DNA of 64,000 nt from assembly GCA_945861665.1 (NCBI GenBank), contig CAMAVS010000004.1:62001-126000 (forward strand), read 5' to 3'. Below, piece after piece: positions 7,262 through 44,875 of this stretch; within the stretch, counting starts at the first letter, position 1, and the number at the start of each line of letters is the position of its first letter. The notes under the pieces were generated by a model, which saw only the letters and a list, made by a program, of their open reading frames with translations, was not told where the DNA came from and searched no databases. The stretch is from Chitinophaga pinensis (GTDB taxonomy: Bacteria > Bacteroidota > Bacteroidia > UBA4408). The translations under genes and the position numbers were made by a program.

Positions 7262-8020
7262 ATGAAAAAATTAACTACCACAATCGTTTTAGGTTTATTC
7301 CTCGCAATAAACGCTAAAGCAAATCACTACAATGTTCAATTGAATTTGAAATTGTATGACAATGCACCCTTTACTTTAAGCATTGATAATGTTAAATATA
7401 CAAATCCAAGCTGTGCATTCAGCACATCGAATATCACACCTGGAAATCATTATATAACAGTAACAAAACATATAATAAATCCTTATGGATATTATGGCAA
7501 TAGTTCAATAACTGTTTTTAAAGGGTATGTTAACCTTCCGATAAATCAGCAACTATATGCACAAATAGACCATTGTAACACTTTTACTGTTTACAATCAA
7601 GTGTCGATGAATAACAACTATTGTGATAATAATTTATACAAAGGTTACGAAAGAAAGCACAATAAATATGACAATGGTGATTATGGCAGAGGCAAAGAAA
7701 ATAATGATTGTATAAATCCTAAATATGAACGTAGAGGAATGAGTATGGCATCTTTTAACAAGTTGAGAATGATGATTGGTAACACAGCTTTTTTAAGTAC
7801 AAAATTAAATTTGGCAAAACAAGCAATTACAGCAAATGGCATATTATCTGCTCAAGTAGAAGAACTAATGAAGCAATTAGATTTTGAAACCGATAGGTTA
7901 AACCTTGCAAAGTTTGCTTACTTGCACACTGTAGATAAGAACAATTACTTTATTGTAAACAATGCTTTTGATTTCGATAGCAGTATTGTACAATTGGAAA
8001 GATACATTGCAATGATATAA
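7262..8020 (+). CDS. Secreted DUF4476 protein
   Basis: This exported protein has 252 residues. Residues 1-20 are a signal peptide (MKKLTTTIV to NAKA). The N-terminal half is a beta-rich, Asn/Tyr-rich region, followed by a polar low-complexity linker (about residues 118-158) rich in Asn, Lys, Tyr and Asp. The C-terminal 90 residues are a helical DUF4476 domain with MSMASFNKL and FETDRLNLAKFAYLHTVD. The family is widespread in Bacteroidota and has no established function. The gene stands alone between divergent or convergent neighbours and ends at a strong terminator. Confidence 0.85.
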   Translation: MKKLTTTIVLGLFLAINAKANHYNVQLNLKLYDNAPFTLSIDNVKYTNPSCAFSTSNITPGNHYITVTKHIINPYGYYGNSSITVFKGYVNLPINQQLYAQIDHCNTFTVYNQVSMNNNYCDNNLYKGYERKHNKYDNGDYGRGKENNDCINPKYERRGMSMASFNKLRMMIGNTAFLSTKLNLAKQAITANGILSAQVEELMKQLDFETDRLNLAKFAYLHTVDKNNYFIVNNAFDFDSSIVQLERYIAMI

Positions 8021-8044
8021 ATTTTGTGGAGTTTGGGTTTGGTT

Positions 8045-8075
8045 CGCAGCGAGGGAAACCTCGCTGCGTTTTTTT
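8045..8075 (+). terminator. Rho-independent terminator after the DUF4476 gene
   Basis: A perfect 10-bp stem (8045-8054 with 8059-8068), closed by a GAAA tetraloop, is followed by seven T residues. It sits 25 bases after the DUF4476 stop and before the convergent response-regulator gene. Confidence 0.93.
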
Positions 8076-8082
8076 AATTTAA

Positions 8083-8853
8083 TTACTGTTTCAATTTGTC
8101 CAATACTTCGCTTCTTCTTCTTCTGGAAACAGCGTGTTTTCGTCCATTTTTCATAACAATAATAATGGGAGAACCTTTTTCATAATGATCACAAAAAGTA
8201 AGGTTAATGATTGAGCTTTTATTGATGCGAATAAAATTCAGGTTTTCTCCCAATAGCTCCTCCCATTCTCCAAGTGTTTTAGGTACATTTATAGTATCCT
8301 CATTTTCAGAATATACGTTGGAATAATTGGAATCGGCCTCCACTTCAATTATGTTTTTTACAGGTAGTAAAACAACATTTCCTCTATTATGAATTGCAAT
8401 TTTTTGATCTTCCAAGTTTGTTTTTAAAGTTTGGATTTGTTGCGAATATTGCTCGCTGCTTCTGGCAGCAGAACCATTTACCTTTTTAAACTTTTCTATC
8501 GCCTTTTTTAAATCAGATTCTTCAACCGGTTTTAACAAATAGTCGAGCGCACTTGCTTTAATAGCATTGAGGGCGTACTGGTCGTAGCTAGTAACAAAAA
8601 TTATCTCAAAAGTGTGCTTTGTGAATTTTTCTAAAAGCTCAAATCCACCACCACCTGGCATCTTAATATCCAAAAATAAAAGTTCGGGATTGTGTTTTTG
8701 AATTAGTGTATAGGCTTGTTTAATATTGTCGGATTCGGCTACAACATTAATTTCCGGACAAAATAATTTCAATAGTGCACCAAGTACAATTCGATTATCC
8801 GATTCATCATCTACAATAATTGCATTATAGATTTTTTCTGCATTAGTTGTCAT
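8083..8853 (-). CDS. LytTR-type response regulator
   Basis: This 256-residue two-component regulator has an N-terminal receiver domain (about 9-125): acidic pocket VDDESDN, phospho-acceptor Asp in LLFLDIKMPG, conserved Thr/Ser in IIFVTSYDQYA and Lys in LLKPVEE. A short coiled linker leads to a C-terminal LytTR DNA-binding domain (about 155-253, with IIEVEADSNYSNVY and SRRRRSEVLDKL). It overlaps the end of the sensor kinase gene by 11 bases and lies downstream of it, so the two are almost certainly co-transcribed and partners. Target promoters are unknown. Confidence 0.93.
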   Translation of the reverse strand: MTTNAEKIYNAIIVDDESDNRIVLGALLKLFCPEINVVAESDNIKQAYTLIQKHNPELLFLDIKMPGGGGFELLEKFTKHTFEIIFVTSYDQYALNAIKASALDYLLKPVEESDLKKAIEKFKKVNGSAARSSEQYSQQIQTLKTNLEDQKIAIHNRGNVVLLPVKNIIEVEADSNYSNVYSENEDTINVPKTLGEWEELLGENLNFIRINKSSIINLTFCDHYEKGSPIIIVMKNGRKHAVSRRRRSEVLDKLKQ

Positions 8854-11785
8854 CTAATAATTTTAAGGTTATTACTATTTTTGTACCTGCTGCTTGCTTA
8901 TCGTTGTTATATAAATCAATAATTTCTATGGTAGAATCAACTAAGTTTAATCGCTCTTTTGTAATGGTAAGTGCCAGTGATTTAGGTTTATTTTCACTCA
9001 TGTTTATTTTTTTAGCTTCGGCTCGCCCTACCCCATTATCTTCAATTACAATAGTTAAATAATTATCATCTTTATTTTCGATACGAAGCCAAACTTTACC
9101 TTTAACCGTCTCGGGAAGATGGGTTACTCCATGCCAAATAGCATTTTCAATATATGGCTGTATCATCATCGTAGGAATACTCGATAGCTCCAGATTTACT
9201 TTTTCGTTAGGAATAATTTTAAATTCAAATTTATTTTGTAAACGTATTTGTTCAATTTGCATATACAAATCTAAAAACTCAATTTCTTTGCTTAAACGAA
9301 TATAATTGTTTTGTGACGTTTCCAAAACAAAACGTATAAGTTTTCCAAATTTCGCCAAGTACGAGTATGCCTTTTCGGGATTGTTAGTTAGTATATACTT
9401 TTGAATAGAGTTTAAGGAATTAAATATAAAATGTGGATTCATTTGAGCCTGTAGCGTATTCATTTTATAATCGGCAATTAACTTCTGAACCTTGATTTGC
9501 TTTTTAGCATTTTTTTGTATGCTTCTTGTTCTTATATAAATAGTAAGTGCAACCATAACTATAACTATAAATAGGATTGTTAAAACAAACCACAATTTTT
9601 GCCAGTAAGGTTTATCAATCGTAAAACTTACAAAAGCTCCAGACTTATCTGTCGCAGCTTGTTTATTATAGGCAGATAAATGATTAATTCGAATAGAGTA
9701 TGTGCCTGATTTCAACTCTTCGAAAACAAATTCATTGCCGCTTGTATATTCACTCTTTTTTTTGTCATGGATGAGCGTGTAGTGGTATTGAATATTATCG
9801 AAATTTTTGTAGGATGGCGATTCAACAACCAAGGATATTTTATTTATAGTGTACTTGAATAAGGTTGTATTAGCATTGGAATAATCTGTTTGTATAACAT
9901 CTGTTATAAATTGTGCCCGTATATGTTGCACAGATATTTCCTTTTTTATTTCATTTGTTTTTGCATAACATACACCTTTACTGGTTCCAATTATTAAATT
10001 GTTTTTGAAAAGAAGCACTTTGTTTATTTCATTTGATAATAATCCATCACTTTCAAGGTATGACTCTAATAAATAATCACGTTTCATAACAGAATTAAGG
10101 ATAATTCTGCACAGTCCATTATTAGTGCCTATCCAAGCAGTATCATTAGAAGTTGTTATACTTGTTGCGGTAAATGATGGAAATTTATCATTTTTATCAA
10201 TCAGTAAAAAATTATTTCCGTCTATGATTCCAATTCCATACCCTTTTATAGAAACCCAATACCTGTTTTTGTAGTCAGCGTGAATTAGGTCAACTCTATT
10301 TGTAAGCAGTGAATTTACTTTGGAAAAATCAAAGAGAGTTTTATTTTTATAAATAAACAATCCTCTAATCCCTGCAATCAGTAAATCTCCGTTTCTGTCA
10401 ACATCAATCCCAAACGATTTTATTTTTAGTCCGGGAATACCGTTTATAATATCTTTTGAGAAGCAATCGATGATACCTGAATTTATATTTCCATATACTT
10501 TTGTTTTGCCAACAGCCATTGATTTAATGCCTCCGCCCATTTTATCAATTGAACTGGCAGAAAGTCTTGAATTGAATGCGAGAGTTGCTTCTGGAAAACA
10601 AGCATAGACCGTTCCTTTGATACTTTTTAAAAATAGTAGTCTTGAAATTTTGTTTTCAATACTTGTAACCAACTTTATTTCGTTGTTTGAAGCAAATTCT
10701 AAATTTATTATACTTCCTTTTCTAGTTCCAACATATAATTGTTTGGAGGTCGTATCCATACAGGTTATATTTTGTGTTGCAATCCCATTGTCCCCCACTA
10801 CTTTAAAAATCTTGTTTTGAGAAAAAAATATACCATTTTCTAGCGTTCCTAACCAAATACCATTTTCATTATCTGAACAAATAGAAGTAATTGTGTTACC
10901 CTTGAGCATATTCAATGGCTCAGAATTAATATCTCCCTTCTTAAAGTATTTCACTCCATCATTAACCAATCCTATCCATAAGCAATTTTCTGTATCAAGA
11001 AATACACTGGCAATATCTTTTTCAAAAACTTTTTTTGTGTAGCTGCCATCCTTGTTTAATACAAAAAAACAATTTGCAATGCTAAATCCAATATTACCGG
11101 TATTAAATTTTACTGATTTAACATTTAAGTTATAGCTGTTTACTCCGGTCAGGTCCAGCATGTATTTTTTTTCAATTTTATTAGTTGACACAATAATTTC
11201 CATTTTTTTTACAGAAGTAGTAAATTGTGTTAATAAAATATTATCGTAACTGCAAAGAAGGCTGCCAGATGAATTTATAAAATGAATAGACGTTTTTAGA
11301 TATTTATCCGGATATATACTAAAATAGGCTTCGTTTGATTTTTTCGAAAACAAACCATGATTATAATTTAACCAAATGGTATTATTATCATCCACTTTAC
11401 ATTTATTTATTCTGTCGGAATAATCGTTTGAATACTTAATTGTGCTTGTTTTATTAGGCTTTTCAATACCAATTTTGGCAACACTCATATTGTAGCCAGT
11501 AAGAACCAATTCACTTTTGCCAAAAGGGACAATGTGAAAAATAGTATTGTCTAGCAAACCATTTAAGCGGGAGAATGTTTCTATTTTTCCGTTTGAAAAT
11601 CTTCCAATACCTTCGTCAGAGCAAAACCAAATAAAACCATTTTGATCTTTTTCTATATCATATACCTCAGAACTGGGTAACCCCTCCCTTGTTGTATAGT
11701 TTTTAAAATTAAAGGATTGTGCTAGCAGGAGTGAGCAAGTTGAAAGCAAAGCTAAAAAAGAAACAATAACCTTATTGAAGTTCAT
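8843..11785 (-). CDS. Sensor histidine kinase with periplasmic beta-propeller and Y_Y_Y domain (LytS-type kinase)
   Basis: This 980-residue membrane sensor has a signal peptide (1-22, ending LLAQ) and then a long beta-propeller-like sensor region of two-component regulator repeats (about 25-610, with repeated IWFCSDEGIGRF, LWIGLVNDG, IWLGTLENG and AWIGTNNGL blades). A Y_Y_Y-type beta domain (about 640-725) precedes one membrane helix near 738-758. The cytoplasmic part is a LytS-type kinase: phospho-acceptor His785 in MNPHFIFNSLNS, then a GHKL ATPase with YIENAIWHG and IEDNGVGR. The ligand is unknown. It is the first gene of a pair with the LytTR regulator. Confidence 0.92.
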   Translation of the reverse strand: MNFNKVIVSFLALLSTCSLLLAQSFNFKNYTTREGLPSSEVYDIEKDQNGFIWFCSDEGIGRFSNGKIETFSRLNGLLDNTIFHIVPFGKSELVLTGYNMSVAKIGIEKPNKTSTIKYSNDYSDRINKCKVDDNNTIWLNYNHGLFSKKSNEAYFSIYPDKYLKTSIHFINSSGSLLCSYDNILLTQFTTSVKKMEIIVSTNKIEKKYMLDLTGVNSYNLNVKSVKFNTGNIGFSIANCFFVLNKDGSYTKKVFEKDIASVFLDTENCLWIGLVNDGVKYFKKGDINSEPLNMLKGNTITSICSDNENGIWLGTLENGIFFSQNKIFKVVGDNGIATQNITCMDTTSKQLYVGTRKGSIINLEFASNNEIKLVTSIENKISRLLFLKSIKGTVYACFPEATLAFNSRLSASSIDKMGGGIKSMAVGKTKVYGNINSGIIDCFSKDIINGIPGLKIKSFGIDVDRNGDLLIAGIRGLFIYKNKTLFDFSKVNSLLTNRVDLIHADYKNRYWVSIKGYGIGIIDGNNFLLIDKNDKFPSFTATSITTSNDTAWIGTNNGLCRIILNSVMKRDYLLESYLESDGLLSNEINKVLLFKNNLIIGTSKGVCYAKTNEIKKEISVQHIRAQFITDVIQTDYSNANTTLFKYTINKISLVVESPSYKNFDNIQYHYTLIHDKKKSEYTSGNEFVFEELKSGTYSIRINHLSAYNKQAATDKSGAFVSFTIDKPYWQKLWFVLTILFIVIVMVALTIYIRTRSIQKNAKKQIKVQKLIADYKMNTLQAQMNPHFIFNSLNSIQKYILTNNPEKAYSYLAKFGKLIRFVLETSQNNYIRLSKEIEFLDLYMQIEQIRLQNKFEFKIIPNEKVNLELSSIPTMMIQPYIENAIWHGVTHLPETVKGKVWLRIENKDDNYLTIVIEDNGVGRAEAKKINMSENKPKSLALTITKERLNLVDSTIEIIDLYNNDKQAAGTKIVITLKLLDDN

Positions 11786-18858: not shown

Positions 18859-19126
18859 CTTACAAAGTTAAAGCATACGAAGTGTGAAAATAATTGTGGA
18901 ATAAAAATGAGTTAACAATGAGGTGTTTATATCCAGTTACCGATTCTAATAATGTTTACGCTAGTGTGGGGTAGTAAAGCAAGTCAATTTATTTTATTAA
19001 AATAATTTAAGTTGTCCTACTCGTATGACTTTTCAGTTACACCCCGTTTTTTAAAAAAAATTAAGTTGGTTCTGGACTCCACTTATATTTGTCAATAATA
19101 CAAAATTTATTTTAAAAAAAAATTCA

Positions 19127-22717: not shown

Positions 22718-22966
22718 ATGAAAAAAGACCTACATCCAGAAAACTACAGATTAGTTGTTTTTAAAGATATGTCAATTGATTACTCTTTTATTACGAAATC
22801 AACATCCGATACGAAGGAAACGGTTGTTTGGGAAGACGGCAAGGAATATCCTTTGGTAAAACTTGAAATATCCTCTAAATCGCATCCATTTTATACAGGA
22901 AAAGTTAAATTAGTAGATACTGCCGGTCGTGTTGATAAATTCAATACGCGCTATCAGAAAAAATAG
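22718..22966 (+). CDS. rpmE2: 50S ribosomal protein L31 type B
   Basis: This 82-residue L31 has the type B signature [19 protein letters not shown] and the C-terminal [13 protein letters not shown]. It has no cysteine, so it is the zinc-free form, which in many bacteria replaces zinc-binding L31 under zinc limitation. The ATG at 22718 is used because it starts the conserved protein and lies just after the promoter. A strong terminator follows. Confidence 0.96.
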
Positions 22967-23010: not shown

Positions 23011-23038
23011 AGTCCCACAGAAATGTGGGACTTTTTTT
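23011..23038 (+). terminator. Rho-independent terminator after rpmE2
   Basis: A perfect 9-bp stem AGTCCCACA/TGTGGGACT with a GAAA loop is followed by a T-run. An ATG at 23025 falls inside this stem, so it is unlikely to be the start of the following gene. Confidence 0.92.
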
Positions 23039-23069: not shown

Positions 23070-24575
23070 GTGAGTAGTACCCCAACCAATCCATCCGACC
23101 AAAAATACGTCCTTAGCAAATCGACCTACATTCGTGGTCTGCAATGCAAAAAATCGCTATTCCTCTATAAAAAATTCATTCAACTTCGCGATCCGCTAAG
23201 CAGTGAACAAGCTGCTATTTTTAGTCGTGGTACAAATATCGGTTTAATCGCTCAAGGATTGTTTCCGGGTGGTACAGATGCCAGAAGTTTCTGTAAAAGC
23301 AGTAACGAGGCTATTAAAAAAACACAAGAGCTAATAAATTCAGGAGAAGAAATAATTTATGAAGCAGCTTTTCAACACGATCAGGTATTAGTGTACTTGG
23401 ATATATTGATTAAAAAAGATGGAAAGTGGTTTGCTTATGAAGTAAAAAGTTCGGTTAAAGTTAGCAAAACCTATATGAACGATGCCGCTTTGCAGTATTT
23501 TGTAATCACTCAAAACGGATTGCTATTGGAAGCAATGAATATTCTGTATATAAACAAAGAATACCAAAGAAAAAAGGAATTACAACTGGAGCAATTTTTT
23601 CTAACAAAAGAAGTAAGCGATTATTGCAAGGGACAAACTGAGGATATACAAGCAAAATTAGTTGACTTAAAAGAGGTTATTAAACTGGAAGCTATTCCCG
23701 AAATAAGTATAGGAGAACATTGTAATAGTCCCTACCCTTGCGATTTTATGAGTTATTGCTGGAAAAATGTACCGAATGATTCTGTCTTTAATATTATGGG
23801 CGCTAATAGAAGCGAACTTTTTTCAATGTATAATGCAGGTATTAAAAGCATAAAAGATATTGAGAACGAAGAAGTATATAATCGTGAGCAACGTATACAA
23901 ATATGGAGTTATAAGAATAAAAAGGCCTTTGCTTCAAAAAAAGGATTAAACGATTTTTTTGACACCCTCACTTACCCCATCTACTTTTTGGATATTGAAA
24001 TTTGTATGCCTGCCTTGCCCGAATTTGAAGGCAACTATCCATATCAACACACTCCTTACCAATACTCACTTCATTACAAACAAAATGCTGATGCAGAATT
24101 GTCACATATTGATTTTTTAGCCGAAAGTATGGGTAATCCATCGCGACAGTTTTTAGATCATTTTTTAGCACATATTGGAAACAAAGGCAGTATTCTCATT
24201 TTTGATGATTCGGCCGAACGGAGAGTTTTAAACCAATTGGTAAAGGAAATGCCAGAAAGAAAAGCTGAAATGGACAAAGTATTAAACCGCTTTGTGGACA
24301 TCTCGCAGGTATTTATGAAAAGACATTATTACAATCCTTTAATGAAGGGTTCCTTATCACTTAAAAATATATTACCAGCCTTACTACCTGGTATTGATTA
24401 CAGTAAGTTGGCTATAAGCAATGGTGTTACAGCTTTGGCTGCATTTGATAAGCTGCGCAATCCACAAGCCGATTTATTTGAGATAGATGAGTTACGAAAA
24501 AATTTGCTGGAGTATTGCAAAATGGATACCTATGCAATTGCAATGATTACAGAAAAGTTGAGGGAGTTTATTTGA
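23070..24575 (+). CDS. DUF2779 protein: Cas4-like iron-sulfur nuclease fused to DEDDy-type exonuclease
   Basis: About 501 residues. The N-terminal half looks like a Cas4/RecB-type PD-(D/E)XK nuclease: LSKSTYIRGLQC near the start, then YLDILI and YEVKSS as catalytic Asp and Glu-x-Lys, and a late Cys cluster C-x5-C-x5-C (CNSPYPCDFMSYC). Together with the early Cys this could hold a 4Fe-4S cluster. The C-terminal half is the DUF2779 RNase H-like exonuclease, with FLDIE, FVDIS and the YCKMD motif of DEDDy enzymes. The biological role of the family is unknown; DNA or RNA processing is inferred. GTG 23070 (or TTG 23061) is preferred because ATG 23025 lies in the rpmE2 terminator. Confidence 0.85.
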   Translation: MSSTPTNPSDQKYVLSKSTYIRGLQCKKSLFLYKKFIQLRDPLSSEQAAIFSRGTNIGLIAQGLFPGGTDARSFCKSSNEAIKKTQELINSGEEIIYEAAFQHDQVLVYLDILIKKDGKWFAYEVKSSVKVSKTYMNDAALQYFVITQNGLLLEAMNILYINKEYQRKKELQLEQFFLTKEVSDYCKGQTEDIQAKLVDLKEVIKLEAIPEISIGEHCNSPYPCDFMSYCWKNVPNDSVFNIMGANRSELFSMYNAGIKSIKDIENEEVYNREQRIQIWSYKNKKAFASKKGLNDFFDTLTYPIYFLDIEICMPALPEFEGNYPYQHTPYQYSLHYKQNADAELSHIDFLAESMGNPSRQFLDHFLAHIGNKGSILIFDDSAERRVLNQLVKEMPERKAEMDKVLNRFVDISQVFMKRHYYNPLMKGSLSLKNILPALLPGIDYSKLAISNGVTALAAFDKLRNPQADLFEIDELRKNLLEYCKMDTYAIAMITEKLREFI

Positions 24576-24664: not shown

Positions 24665-25045
24665 CTAGCTCACAACTGCAATAACAGATATTTCAACATT
24701 TACATCTTTCGGTAAACGCGACACTTGAACGGTTTCTCTGGCAGGAAAATCTTTCGTAAAATAAGAACCGTATACCTCATTCACTTTTGCAAAATTATTC
24801 ATATCGCTTAAAAAAATACTCGTTTTAACAACGTTTGTAAAATCCATTCCTGCTTCGGTAAGTATAGCTTTTATATTGTCCATTACCCTTTTTGTTTCTT
24901 CAATGATATTGTCCAATATTAAAAGTCCCGTAGCTGAATTAATTGCAATTTGTCCTGACACATATAGTGTTCCATTTACCAGCACAGCTTGGCTGTATGG
25001 GCCAATAGGTGAAGGTGCATTAGTTGTGGCGATAATCTTTTTCAT
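24665..25045 (-). CDS. RidA-family enamine/imine deaminase
   Basis: This 126-residue protein of the RidA/YjgF family hydrolyses reactive enamines such as 2-aminoacrylate produced by PLP enzymes. The N-terminal PSPIGPYSQAV, the middle VKTSIFLSDMNNFAKVNEVY and the catalytic Arg in FPARETVQVSRLP are all present, and the length is standard for the trimeric enzyme. It is transcribed on its own strand block upstream of nothing obvious; the gene to its right (cdaA) is 158 bases away. Confidence 0.95.
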   Translation of the reverse strand: MKKIIATTNAPSPIGPYSQAVLVNGTLYVSGQIAINSATGLLILDNIIEETKRVMDNIKAILTEAGMDFTNVVKTSIFLSDMNNFAKVNEVYGSYFTKDFPARETVQVSRLPKDVNVEISVIAVVS

Positions 25046-31850: not shown

Positions 31851-31876
31851 TGTTGTAAATTTATAAAAATAAAAAA

Positions 31877-31972
31877 GGGTAAGCCCCTTATATCGCACCG
31901 CTCAACCACCTACCCTTGCACCCTTCCAGATCTGGGGGAGTTCAGTAGGAGCTGGTCGTATAAGACTTACCC
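31877..31972 (-). ncRNA. ffs: Small bacterial signal recognition particle RNA
   Basis: A 96-base RNA read on the minus strand folds into one long hairpin. The outer helix GGGTAAG/CTTACCC closes it, and UUAUA/UAUAA and ACCAGCUC/GAGCGGU helices follow. The tip holds the SRP signature CAGATCTGGAAGGGTGCA: GGAA tetraloop plus the CAG/GCA symmetric loop that binds Ffh. The signature exists only on this strand. A promoter ends five bases upstream, and a T-rich run (TTTTTTATTTTT) directly after the outer helix makes it its own terminator. With Ffh it targets nascent membrane proteins. ruvX starts 26 bases downstream. Confidence 0.9.
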
Positions 31973-31976
31973 ACCA

Positions 31977-32005
31977 CAAAAGTAGAAAATTTTATATGTA
32001 AACAA
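31977..32005 (-). promoter_or_regulatory. Promoter of the SRP RNA gene
   Basis: On the minus strand TTG (32005-32003), 18 bases and TACTTTTG (31984-31977) match the Bacteroidota consensus. The RNA 5' end GGG follows after four bases, the expected start distance. Confidence 0.75.
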
Positions 32006-41740: not shown

Positions 41741-44700
41741 TTGAACTTCACCGTATATAAATCATCGGCAGGATCGGGGAAAACATTCACCCTTGTAAAG
41801 GAGTATCTCAAACTTGCTTTAAAAGGTGATAACGTTAAAGAATACAAATCTATTTTAGCGATTACGTTTACCAACAAGGCTGCGGCCGAAATGAAAGAAA
41901 GAGTGCTCTTGGCACTTAAAAGTTTTTCGAGCAAAGAAAAACTGGAAGGAACACCACTATTTTTACTTCTTGAATTGGAAAAAGAACTAAAGCTTCCTCA
42001 ACACGAAATTCGTGCGAAAGCTAAAAAAGTAATCAGCTCAATGCTTCACAATTATTCCGACATAGGCATTAGCACCATTGATAAATTCACCCATAGAATT
42101 ATTCGAACATTTGCTTACGACCTGCACATTAAAATGAATTTTTCGGTAGAGACCGATGAAAAAGAGATGTTGGAAAAGGCAATTGATATGGTGTTGAGTA
42201 AAATTGGTGAAGATGTTAAACTCACAGAGGTTCTTAAAGAATTTACAGTGAGTAAAGCTGAAGATGAAAAAAACTGGTCGATAGAAGCTGACTTGTTTAA
42301 TTTTTCAAAAAGCTTATTGAAGGACGAAGGAATTTCACACATCGACAAAATAAAAGAAATAAGCATTGATGAATTTAATGAAATAAAAAAAACGCTGCAA
42401 AATACTATTCGCGAATTCGAAAAAACGATATCCACATTTGGAAAAAAAGGATTGGCATTAATTGAATCTTTAGGTGTTGACAAAGCTTCTTTTGCAGGTG
42501 GCGCAAATGGATTACCAAAGTATTTTGAATATTTAGGAACACTCAAATTCGATAAACTAAAACCTTCAAATACGATTCAAAAGGCAATTGCTGATGATAA
42601 ATGGTTTGCAGCAAAAGCATCTGTTAGCGATAAACAAAACATTGAAAGTATCAAAGTACGCTTATTGGAAATATACAATAAGGCAATACAGACAATAGAT
42701 TCAAACATAAAAGAAATAAGCTTGTTTAGAAGTATAAACAAAAACATTTATAGTTTAATAACACTCAATGAAATAGAAAAAGCAATTGTTCAAATCAAAA
42801 ACGAGGATAATATTTTACACATTTCAGAATTCAACAAGCGAATTGCGAACATCGTAATGTATGAGTCGGCTCCTTTTATTTACGAAAGACTCGGCGAAAA
42901 ATACAAGCATTTCCTGATTGATGAATTTCAAGATACCTCAGTATTACAATGGCATAATTTGTTGCCACTTATCGACAATTCACTCGCCAACGGAAATTTC
43001 AATATGTTAGTAGGCGATGGAAAACAATCTATTTACCGTTGGCGTGGTGGTGATGTAGAGCAATTTACCGCATTACCCGAAATGAAAATGTCGAGCAATT
43101 CAATTGTACAAGAAAGAGAAGCAGCATTGAAACGTTATTATTGTGGTAAAATATTACAGCAAAATTATCGCAGCAAAGCGGAGGTTGTAGAGTTTAATAA
43201 CAACTTTTTTAAAAGCTGCGCAAAACAATCTAACAACGGCTTAATTACAACCGTATACGAAAAGGGGGAGCAATTGTGTGATCCGACCAACATAGGTGGA
43301 GGTGTAAGCATTGAGTTCATCAAAAAAGATGAAGAAAATGAATTTACATACGATGAACAAAGCTGTTTTAAAATACTTCAAACAATTCATCAACTGCAAG
43401 AAGATAATTTTGAACTGCGCGACATAGCAATCATTTGCCGTATTAATTCAAAAGCAAATATAGTAGCTAATTACCTTATTGAAAATGGTATTCCTATTCT
43501 TTCAAAAGAATCGCTTTTGCTGTCTAGCTCACCTTATGTAAACTTTATACTGTCGACACTCGAATACATTCACAACAGATCAAACAATGTTGCAAAAGCA
43601 AACATTATTCAATTCATCTGTAAACTAAAAGATAAACAAGAAAACAGCTGTGAAGAATTAATGTCAGCCAACATCTCCGAGTTTATGGAGAAACATAAAA
43701 TCGCCTTTAATTTAAGTTATTTCAGCTCCTTGCCAATTTACGAATTGTGTGAAGAAATTATCAGAAATACGGGGTTGAATGAAAGGGCAAACCCATATAT
43801 TCAGTTTTTTTTAGATGCTGTCTACAAATTCTCGATAAAAAACAACACAGGTATAGGGGGCTTTTTAGAATGGTGGGAAAATAAAAAAAATAAACTTTCG
43901 GTAAACATTCCAGAAGGTATGAATGCAGTCAACATATTAACCATACACAAATCAAAGGGGCTTGAATTTCCCGCTGTTATATTTGCCTTTGCCAACTGGC
44001 AAGCAGTAAATAACGATGCTATATGGGTATCGGTAGAAAACGACAAAATACCCAAATTAAAGTCGGCACTCATTCAAAAAAACAAGAATTTTGATGATAC
44101 TGACTATGCCACACTACTGGAAATAGAAAAAAGTAAAGAAAATATGGACAACCTAAATCTATTGTATGTTTCTTTAACACGACCAATGGAAAGATTATAC
44201 ATTATAACAGATAAAGCCTACGGACAAAAAAAAATAGCCAACTACTATCAAAATTATTTAACGGAAATAGGTGAATGGGACAATGATAAAACTAGCTACC
44301 ATTTTGGACTGTTCAAAAAGTATGTACACAATAATAATAAAAAAATTAAAAAGCCAATTACACTCACTAAAATCATTTCAGAGCCTTGGCAGGATAAACT
44401 AAGAATTAGTACAGACTACCAAAGCGTAGACCAAAATTTTGATAATAAAAATCAAAAAAAATACGGAAATCTCCTTCACACTGCTCTCTCTAAAATTAAA
44501 AATTTAGATGATGTTGAAGCATCCTTGTCAAATATGTTGCAAAAAGGACTGATTAACTTAGAAGAGAGCAAAAAACTAAATACAATAATTGTAACCCTGA
44601 TAAGTAATAAAGACATTCATCCATTTTTTACTGAAGAATTAAATAGTAAAAACGAAAGAGATATACTGCTCCCAAACGGTGAAACATACCGTCCTGACAG

Positions 44701-44875
44701 AGTAATACTAAAAGAAAAACATGCCATTATACTTGATTATAAAACAGGAAAAGAAAATAAAAAGTATGCTGCACAACTAAATAAATATGGAACTATTTTG
44801 GAGCAAATGGGATATAGTCAAGTTGAAAAATACATACTCTATACAGAAGAGCAAAAATTGGAAAAAATAAATTAA
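41741..44875 (+). CDS. AddA/RecB-type UvrD helicase-nuclease
   Basis: This 1044-residue protein has a UvrD/SF1 helicase (Walker A SSAGSGKT at 8-15, FTNKAAAEMKERV, Walker B LIDEFQDTS, motif VI LLYVSLTRPMERLY) and a C-terminal RecB-type nuclease (GNLLHTAL, RPDRVIL, LDYKTGK, AAQLNKY) with the catalytic Asp and Asp-x-Lys intact. It resects double-strand breaks and is usually paired with an AddB-type nuclease gene, not found here. TTG 41741 is the start, giving MNFTVYKSSAG. It forms an operon with the ABC exporter upstream. Confidence 0.92.
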   Translation: MNFTVYKSSAGSGKTFTLVKEYLKLALKGDNVKEYKSILAITFTNKAAAEMKERVLLALKSFSSKEKLEGTPLFLLLELEKELKLPQHEIRAKAKKVISSMLHNYSDIGISTIDKFTHRIIRTFAYDLHIKMNFSVETDEKEMLEKAIDMVLSKIGEDVKLTEVLKEFTVSKAEDEKNWSIEADLFNFSKSLLKDEGISHIDKIKEISIDEFNEIKKTLQNTIREFEKTISTFGKKGLALIESLGVDKASFAGGANGLPKYFEYLGTLKFDKLKPSNTIQKAIADDKWFAAKASVSDKQNIESIKVRLLEIYNKAIQTIDSNIKEISLFRSINKNIYSLITLNEIEKAIVQIKNEDNILHISEFNKRIANIVMYESAPFIYERLGEKYKHFLIDEFQDTSVLQWHNLLPLIDNSLANGNFNMLVGDGKQSIYRWRGGDVEQFTALPEMKMSSNSIVQEREAALKRYYCGKILQQNYRSKAEVVEFNNNFFKSCAKQSNNGLITTVYEKGEQLCDPTNIGGGVSIEFIKKDEENEFTYDEQSCFKILQTIHQLQEDNFELRDIAIICRINSKANIVANYLIENGIPILSKESLLLSSSPYVNFILSTLEYIHNRSNNVAKANIIQFICKLKDKQENSCEELMSANISEFMEKHKIAFNLSYFSSLPIYELCEEIIRNTGLNERANPYIQFFLDAVYKFSIKNNTGIGGFLEWWENKKNKLSVNIPEGMNAVNILTIHKSKGLEFPAVIFAFANWQAVNNDAIWVSVENDKIPKLKSALIQKNKNFDDTDYATLLEIEKSKENMDNLNLLYVSLTRPMERLYIITDKAYGQKKIANYYQNYLTEIGEWDNDKTSYHFGLFKKYVHNNNKKIKKPITLTKIISEPWQDKLRISTDYQSVDQNFDNKNQKKYGNLLHTALSKIKNLDDVEASLSNMLQKGLINLEESKKLNTIIVTLISNKDIHPFFTEELNSKNERDILLPNGETYRPDRVILKEKHAIILDYKTGKENKKYAAQLNKYGTILEQMGYSQVEKYILYTEEQKLEKIN

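What the first reader, a model, noticed from the sequence alone, without database searches (positions are those of the whole stretch)
23070..24575. Cas4-like iron-sulfur nuclease fused to a DEDDy exonuclease (DUF2779) with no cas genes nearby
Seen: an N-terminal PD-(D/E)XK-type core (LDIL, EVKSS), one early Cys and a late C-x5-C-x5-C set, as in 4Fe-4S Cas4/AddB nucleases, followed by an RNase H-like domain with DIE, VDIS and a YxxxD motif. Known: DUF2779 has no assigned role. Inference: a two-nuclease enzyme for end trimming or nucleic-acid clearance, a possible stand-alone defence or repair factor.
Basis: partly seen in the sequence, partly recalled or inferred. Interest (0 to 1): 0.6.

Follow-up and report, generated by a model that had tools for sequence, protein, structure and literature searches.

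The report
Two-nuclease DUF2779 protein, solo copy
This gene makes a real two-in-one enzyme, a Cas4-like iron-sulfur DNA nuclease joined to a second exonuclease; the family and its layout were already on record but its job is unknown, and relatives, including a second copy in the same genome, sit in what look like phage-defence gene clusters while this copy stands alone among housekeeping genes.

Summary
Window 23070-24575 (+) encodes a 501-aa protein with an iron-staple PD-(D/E)XK nuclease (C26, C218, C224, C230; D111, E124, K126, Q142) and a DEDDy-type exonuclease (D308, E310, E383, D410, Y482, D486). Each of these residues is invariant in 89 homologues. AlphaFold pLDDT is 95; nearest solved folds are Cas4/MGME1 and RNase T-like exonucleases. 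Cas4's three C-terminal cluster cysteines align onto C218/C224/C230. It is a plain member of Pfam DUF2779, whose DUF83 + RNase H-like composition was published in 2014. New here: (1) it is colinear over 445 columns with the first half of helicase-bearing TM0106 proteins, sharing an unusual Glu in exonuclease motif II; (2) the family is patchy and mobile, with WYL regulators beside it about 70 times more often than chance; (3) the same genome has a second copy in a WYL-DUF2779-AAA run holding the genome's only WYL gene. The window copy lies in a clade without such neighbours, after a terminator, between rpmE2 and ridA; the genome has no cas1. Best reading: a stand-alone single-strand end-trimming nuclease for repair or DNA clearance. 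Defence is plausible for relatives, not shown for this copy.

The parts
23070..24575 (+). DUF2779 protein, 501 aa, GTG start: two-nuclease enzyme
23103..23774 (+). Iron-staple PD-(D/E)XK (Cas4/AddB-like) nuclease domain, about residues 12-235; D111 (23400-23402), E124 (23439-23441), K126 (23445-23447), Q142 (23493-23495)
   Evidence: Invariant in 89/89; Foldseek Cas4/MGME1/AddAB; hhalign to Cas4
23145..23147 (+). C26, N-terminal cysteine predicted to bind the Fe-S cluster
   Evidence: invariant 89/89
23721..23759 (+). C218-x5-C224-x5-C230, C-terminal cysteine triad predicted to bind the Fe-S cluster
   Evidence: invariant 89/89; aligned on Cas4 Cys
23775..23969 (+). Linker region, residues 236-300, shared with TM0106 proteins
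   Evidence: hhalign
23970..24566 (+). DEDDy-type exonuclease domain, residues 301-499; D308 (23991-23993), E310 (23997-23999), E383 (24216-24218), D410 (24297-24299), Y482 (24513-24515), D486 (24525-24527)
   Evidence: Pfam DUF2779 at residues 305-430; invariant; Foldseek RNase T/PolB exonuclease
23011..23032 (+). Intrinsic terminator of the upstream rpmE2 unit; separates it from the DUF2779 gene
22718..22966 (+). Upstream neighbour: ribosomal protein L31 type B (rpmE2), named by eye from the sequence
24665..25045 (-). Downstream convergent neighbour: RidA family protein, named by eye from the sequence

Best explanation
The protein is an ATP-independent DNA nuclease with two active sites. The N-terminal Cas4/AddB-type domain, held together by one Fe-S cluster on C26/C218/C224/C230, cuts single-stranded DNA at ends or flaps (Cas4 relatives act 5'-3' and endonucleolytically). 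The C-terminal DEDDy domain chews 3' ends. Together they trim or clear single-stranded ends and flaps of both polarities. It is a helicase-less sister of the TM0106 Dna2-like proteins. As a solo chromosomal gene, this copy most likely serves DNA repair or clearance of stray DNA and relies on cellular helicases; other branches of the family have repeatedly been taken into defence-type clusters. Shown: domains, conserved sites, homologies, gene contexts. Inferred: substrate, polarity, Fe-S occupancy, biological role.
For: Both active sites and all four Cys invariant in 89/89 homologues, so both nucleases are under selection. AF2 pLDDT 95.4; Foldseek to Cas4, MGME1, AddAB, RNase T, PolB exonuclease. 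hhalign to Cas4 E 1.4e-7 with Cys on Cas4 Cys. hhalign to TM0106 E 1.7e-12 over 445 columns, with the motif II Glu and a later invariant Lys shared. Published activity of Cas4 on ssDNA (PMC4176176) and of a bacterial Fe-S Dna2-like enzyme (PMC7430649); predicted 3'-5' exonuclease clade for DUF2779 (PMC3985635). Solo context: terminator upstream, no WYL neighbours in its 47-row clade, mostly housekeeping neighbours of related copies.
Against: No biochemistry on any DUF2779 protein was found. Patchy presence (20 of 56 good relatives; 43 of 296 in the phylum) is unlike a core repair gene. RNA substrates are not excluded: DEDD enzymes such as RNase T also act on RNA. The QhxxY Tyr is not kept in place.
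Confidence: 0.6

Rival explanations
1. Dedicated anti-phage or anti-plasmid effector: the window copy degrades invading DNA as a stand-alone defence nuclease.
For: Relatives recur beside WYL regulators, AAA+ ATPases and restriction genes, on plasmids and in islands; patchy, mobile distribution; the paralogue in this genome lies in a WYL run.
Against: The window copy has housekeeping neighbours and no regulator, its own clade of 47 rows has no WYL link, and PADLOC has only a weak Cas4 hit. No functional test exists. WYL and DUF2779 may merely share islands.
Confidence: 0.25
2. RNA-processing or nucleic-acid salvage enzyme: the DEDDy half trims RNA and the other half degrades DNA for nucleotide recycling.
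For: RNase T and 3'hExo are among the closest folds; a Mycoplasma bovis DUF2779 insertion mutant turned up with nanoRNase and c-di-AMP hydrolase mutants in a growth screen (PMC7373297).
Against: The N-terminal domain groups with DNA nucleases; TM0106 kinship points to DNA. The M. bovis mutant was not followed up and that hit is a single insertion. RNase T also acts on DNA.
Confidence: 0.1
3. A Cas4 that serves CRISPR adaptation in trans.
For: Cas4-like fold and cysteines.
Against: No cas1 in the genome, no CRISPR-like repeats in the window, score below the Cas4 cut-off, extra exonuclease domain.
Confidence: 0.01

Closest known systems
Pfam PF11074 DUF2779 family (clade F.17 of Majorek et al. 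2014)
   Same: Full match above cut-off; same DUF83-like plus RNase H-like composition
   Different: Nothing essential. This copy is solo; others are linked to WYL/AAA+ genes
TM0106 family (TIGR03491, COG2251/PF13482), RecB-like nuclease with SF1 helicase half
   Same: Colinear over both nuclease domains and the linker (445 columns, E 1.7e-12); Glu in exonuclease motif II; later invariant Lys
   Different: No helicase half; scores below the TIGR03491 cut-off (37.9 against 97.45 bits); different cysteine spacing
Cas4 (PF01930), including solo-Cas4
   Same: Iron-staple PD-(D/E)XK fold; one N-terminal and three C-terminal Cys; D, E, K, Q motifs
   Different: Fused to a DEDDy exonuclease; C-x5-C-x5-C instead of C-x2-C-x5-C; below the Cas4 cut-off; no cas genes
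Bad / Dna2 iron-staple helicase-nucleases
   Same: Fe-S RecB-family nuclease acting on single-strand ends
   Different: No helicase; has a second nuclease. Whether Bad belongs to TM0106 was not tested
DEDDy 3'-5' exonucleases (PolB type); fold also close to RNase T
   Same: DxE, D and YxxxD motifs and fold
   Different: Invariant Glu replaces the motif II Asp

Membership tests
DUF2779 (PF11074) | Score above Pfam gathering cut-off over the full model | tested here: met
   114.7 bits against 23.3, model 1-126 of 126
Iron-staple RecB/AddB/Cas4-type nuclease | PD-(D/E)XK fold | tested here: met
   Foldseek 4r5q 6e-5, 8d3l_J 7e-5, MGME1 4e-4; model pLDDT 95
Iron-staple RecB/AddB/Cas4-type nuclease | Motif II D, motif III E-x-K, Q of QhxxY | tested here: met
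   D111, E124, K126, Q142 invariant 89/89
Iron-staple RecB/AddB/Cas4-type nuclease | Tyr of QhxxY four residues after Q | tested here: not met
   Position 146 is I/L/M; a Tyr lies at 143 in most members. Membership is therefore claimed at fold and superfamily level only
Iron-staple RecB/AddB/Cas4-type nuclease | Four conserved Cys, one N-terminal and three C-terminal | tested here: met
   C26, C218, C224, C230 invariant 89/89; three align on Cas4 Cys
Iron-staple RecB/AddB/Cas4-type nuclease | Fe-S cluster bound by these Cys | not testable with these tools
   Needs purified protein; inter-Cys distances not available from the model output
Cas4 proper | Score above PF01930 cut-off | tested here: not met
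   17.1 against 22.7 bits
Cas4 proper | Linked cas1/cas2 or CRISPR array | tested here: not met
   No cas1 in genome; no CRISPR-like repeats in window. Solo-Cas4 exists, so this alone is not exclusive
DEDDy exonuclease | DxE, third and fourth acids, YxxxD | tested here: met
   D308/E310, E383 (Glu variant), D410, Y482/D486 invariant; fold matches
TM0106 (TIGR03491) | Score above NCBIfam cut-off | tested here: not met
   37.9 against 97.45 bits
TM0106 (TIGR03491) | C-terminal SF1 helicase half | tested here: not met
   Protein ends at residue 501 after the exonuclease
Known anti-phage defence system | Match to a PADLOC defence protein, or defence gene neighbours | tested here: not met
   Only a weak Cas4 hit, E 0.011; housekeeping neighbours
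Known anti-phage defence system | Protection from phage or plasmids | not testable with these tools
   Needs a bench test

The most novel reading that the evidence does not exclude
WYL-DUF2779-AAA+ clusters, such as the paralogue's in this same genome, are an undescribed family of regulated defence systems whose effector is a helicase-less Dna2-like nuclease with two active sites; the window copy is the unregulated, chromosomally settled form of the same enzyme.
Probability: 0.2. Interest if true: 0.65.

Novelty: new member of a known kind. Interest (0 to 1): 0.36.

Why it matters
DUF2779 is a widespread, mobile family with no assigned role. The link to the TM0106 Dna2-like proteins and the recurrent WYL/AAA+ neighbourhood turn it into a testable hypothesis: a helicase-less end-trimming nuclease that has repeatedly been recruited into defence-type clusters. 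One genome that carries both a solo copy and a WYL-linked copy offers a natural comparison.

Tried and rejected
PDB search by sequence gave only chance hits; the fold search was needed. Looking for a conserved operon partner of the window copy failed: near relatives share no neighbour with it, and ridA lies elsewhere in them. CRISPR link rejected. Phage origin: no full-length match in phage records and only 7 IMG/VR contigs. RidA, L31 or HU as functional partners rejected: terminator in between, convergent, or not shared. A helix-hairpin-helix reading of the linker was left as by-eye only (a Pol lambda profile hit at E 2 is not evidence).

Full report
WHAT WAS CLAIMED AND CHECKED. The finding names an ORF at 23070-24575 (+) with a Cas4-like iron-sulfur nuclease fused to a DEDDy exonuclease (DUF2779) and no cas genes nearby. 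The ORF is open from GTG 23070 to the stop at 24575, 501 aa. A longer GTG start at 23025 is unlikely: it lies inside a 9-bp stem followed by a T run (23011-23032), which looks like the terminator of the upstream rpmE2 unit, and 23070 is then the only plausible start before the conserved LSKS motif (inference). Pfam gives DUF2779 at 4.4e-33, with RNase_H_2 and Cas4 only as weak, below-cut-off hits. NCBIfam gives TM0106 at 1e-9, below its cut-off. PADLOC gives only a weak Cas4 hit.

ANATOMY. In an alignment of 89 sequences (23-49% identical to the window protein) these residues are identical in every row: C26, E98, D111, E124, K126, D138, Q142, C218, C224, C230, D308, E310, E383, D410, K432, Y482, D486. 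Both nuclease sites and all four cysteines are therefore kept together. AlphaFold2 with 72 rows gives mean pLDDT 95.4 and pTM 0.89. Foldseek against the PDB returns Cas4 (4r5q, 8d3l_J), human MGME1 and AddAB, then RNase T, PolB-type exonuclease and 3'hExo; assigning the first group to the N-terminal half and the second to the C-terminal half is my reading. Profile-profile alignment with 14 Cas4 proteins from the same phylum gives E 1.4e-7 and puts C218/C224/C230 on the three C-terminal Cas4 cysteines; in Pcal_0546 Cas4 these, plus one N-terminal Cys, hold the cluster (PMC4176176). Spacing differs (C-x5-C-x5-C against C-x2-C-x5-C), and the QhxxY Tyr is not at its usual place. I did not see coordinates, so cluster geometry remains inferred.

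KINSHIP. Against eight TM0106-family proteins the family aligns over 445 columns through both nuclease domains and the linker (97.7% probability, E 1.7e-12). Both families carry Glu instead of Asp in exonuclease motif II and an invariant Lys further on. The TM0106 proteins have open frames of 1005-1190 aa, against 501 here; their SF1 helicase half is taken from the literature (AAA domains in COG2251, PMC3985635). The window protein thus reads as a helicase-less sister of a Dna2-like group; this is my inference. A bacterial Dna2-like enzyme, Bad, has a measured Fe content and degrades ssDNA (PMC7430649); whether Bad belongs to TM0106 was not tested. In the viral structure library the top four matches, aligned over 558-792 columns at TM 0.54-0.63 of the query, are giant-virus proteins, one named YprB RNase H-like.

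WHAT WAS ALREADY KNOWN. Majorek et al. 2014 placed DUF2779 (F.17) in the 3'-5' exonuclease clade and noted its DUF83, PD-(D/E)XK-like domain (PMC3985635). A full-text search for DUF2779 found six papers; I read the DUF2779 passages of five of them, and none gives an experimental function. A Mycoplasma bovis insertion mutant in a DUF2779 gene was among growth-deficient mutants in cell culture; the paper pursues other genes (PMC7373297). No paper in the held library mentions DUF2779 together with WYL.

DISTRIBUTION AND CONTEXT. The family is patchy: 20 of 56 good-quality relatives and 43 of 296 genomes of the phylum, with 1-3 copies, plus 30 plasmid records from several phyla. Plasmid copies often lie beside WYL regulators, AAA+ ATPases, PLD and PD-(D/E)XK proteins and restriction genes. 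In 40 loci taken without regard to context from the phylum sample, 6 WYL genes lie within 3 genes of the DUF2779 gene (235 genes), against about 0.09 expected from about 1.18 WYL genes per genome, roughly 70-fold (taking about 3,200 genes per genome). The WYL model was my own, built partly from neighbours of other DUF2779 genes; at least four of these six genes (in L155, L159, L160, L172) also appear among the Pfam WYL hits. In that sample nearly all the linked copies belong to the longer, about 650-aa branch of the family, so the enrichment for the 500-aa branch alone rests on the other sets and the plasmids. In the 20 nearest class relatives no WYL gene lies within 3 genes. PADLOC and Pfam tallies of neighbours of WYL-linked copies show, besides WYL by selection, AAA+, type I methyltransferase, PDDEXK_4 and RmuC, while neighbours of solo copies match mostly general helicases and housekeeping families. 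One linked locus continues into a patatin and a CD-NTase-like gene, as in CBASS (L155; named from sequence by eye).

THE TWO COPIES IN THIS GENOME. The window copy stands between rpmE2 and ridA and belongs to a supported clade of 47 rows with no WYL neighbour. A second copy, 33% identical, lies at own-genome C6:7536-9011 (-). It sits in a same-strand run WYL - 115 aa - 327 aa - DUF2779 - 162 aa - AAA - 197 aa - RmuC, beside a second AAA gene and near a type III methyltransferase fragment and a Fic gene. The WYL gene of that run is the only one found in the genome. On the tree the two copies are far apart, and the WYL label needs at least 8 changes by starred branches (FastTree). The genome has no cas1.

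INTERPRETATION. Shown: domains, conserved sites, homology, contexts. Inferred: single-strand DNA end trimming by two sites of opposite polarity, Fe-S occupancy, and role. For the window copy I favour repair or DNA clearance (0.6 for the whole statement) over dedicated defence (0.25). For WYL-linked relatives defence is the better bet, because WYL regulators such as BrxR and CapW control phage-defence systems (PMC9122601, PMC9122588). Shared islands do not prove a shared system.

VERDICT. It is a member of a known but uncharacterised family; interest is moderate, and the paralogue's cluster is the more promising lead.

Noticed in passing
Own genome C6:1-20000 (L126), DUF2779 paralogue at 7512-9020 (-): Same-strand run WYL, 115 aa, 327 aa, DUF2779, 162 aa, AAA, 197 aa, RmuC, with a second AAA gene, a Fic gene and a type III methyltransferase fragment nearby; holds the only WYL gene found in the genome.
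   Followed up: yes
L122:3855-12662 (Sphingobium yanoikuyae plasmid): DUF2779, a TM0106-annotated nuclease, two WYL genes, a PD-(D/E)XK gene and an AAA ATPase within about 9 kb.
   Followed up: partly
Viral structure library: Giant-virus proteins (Cafeteria roenbergensis virus E3T4R0, Faunusvirus, Sylvanvirus, Megaviridae) match the whole two-nuclease model at TM 0.54-0.63.
   Followed up: no
L129:352-9470 (Aliarcobacter cryaerophilus plasmid): SbcD- and SbcC-like genes, an ATP-binding protein and DUF2779 in one run; the last two genes overlap by 14 bases.
   Followed up: no
L155:7149-12286: Long-form DUF2779, WYL, patatin-like and CD-NTase-like genes in a row, suggestive of a CBASS neighbour.
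   Followed up: partly
DUF2779 hits of about 620-680 aa in the phylum sample: A second, longer DUF2779 subfamily with more WYL linkage in the unbiased sample than the 500-aa branch.
   Followed up: partly
window 41741-44875 (+): 1044-aa UvrD/AddA-like helicase with a RecB-type nuclease end (read by eye); no obvious AddB partner among the larger ORFs next to it.
   Followed up: no
window 31873-31979 (-) and 19010-19087 (-): Rfam hits: Bacteroidales small SRP RNA (91 bits) and a borderline DUF805 RNA (51.7 against 51.1).
   Followed up: no
L011 (G035:C13:11720-13189): A DUF2779 copy whose match holds one in-frame TAA, possibly a decaying gene.
   Followed up: no
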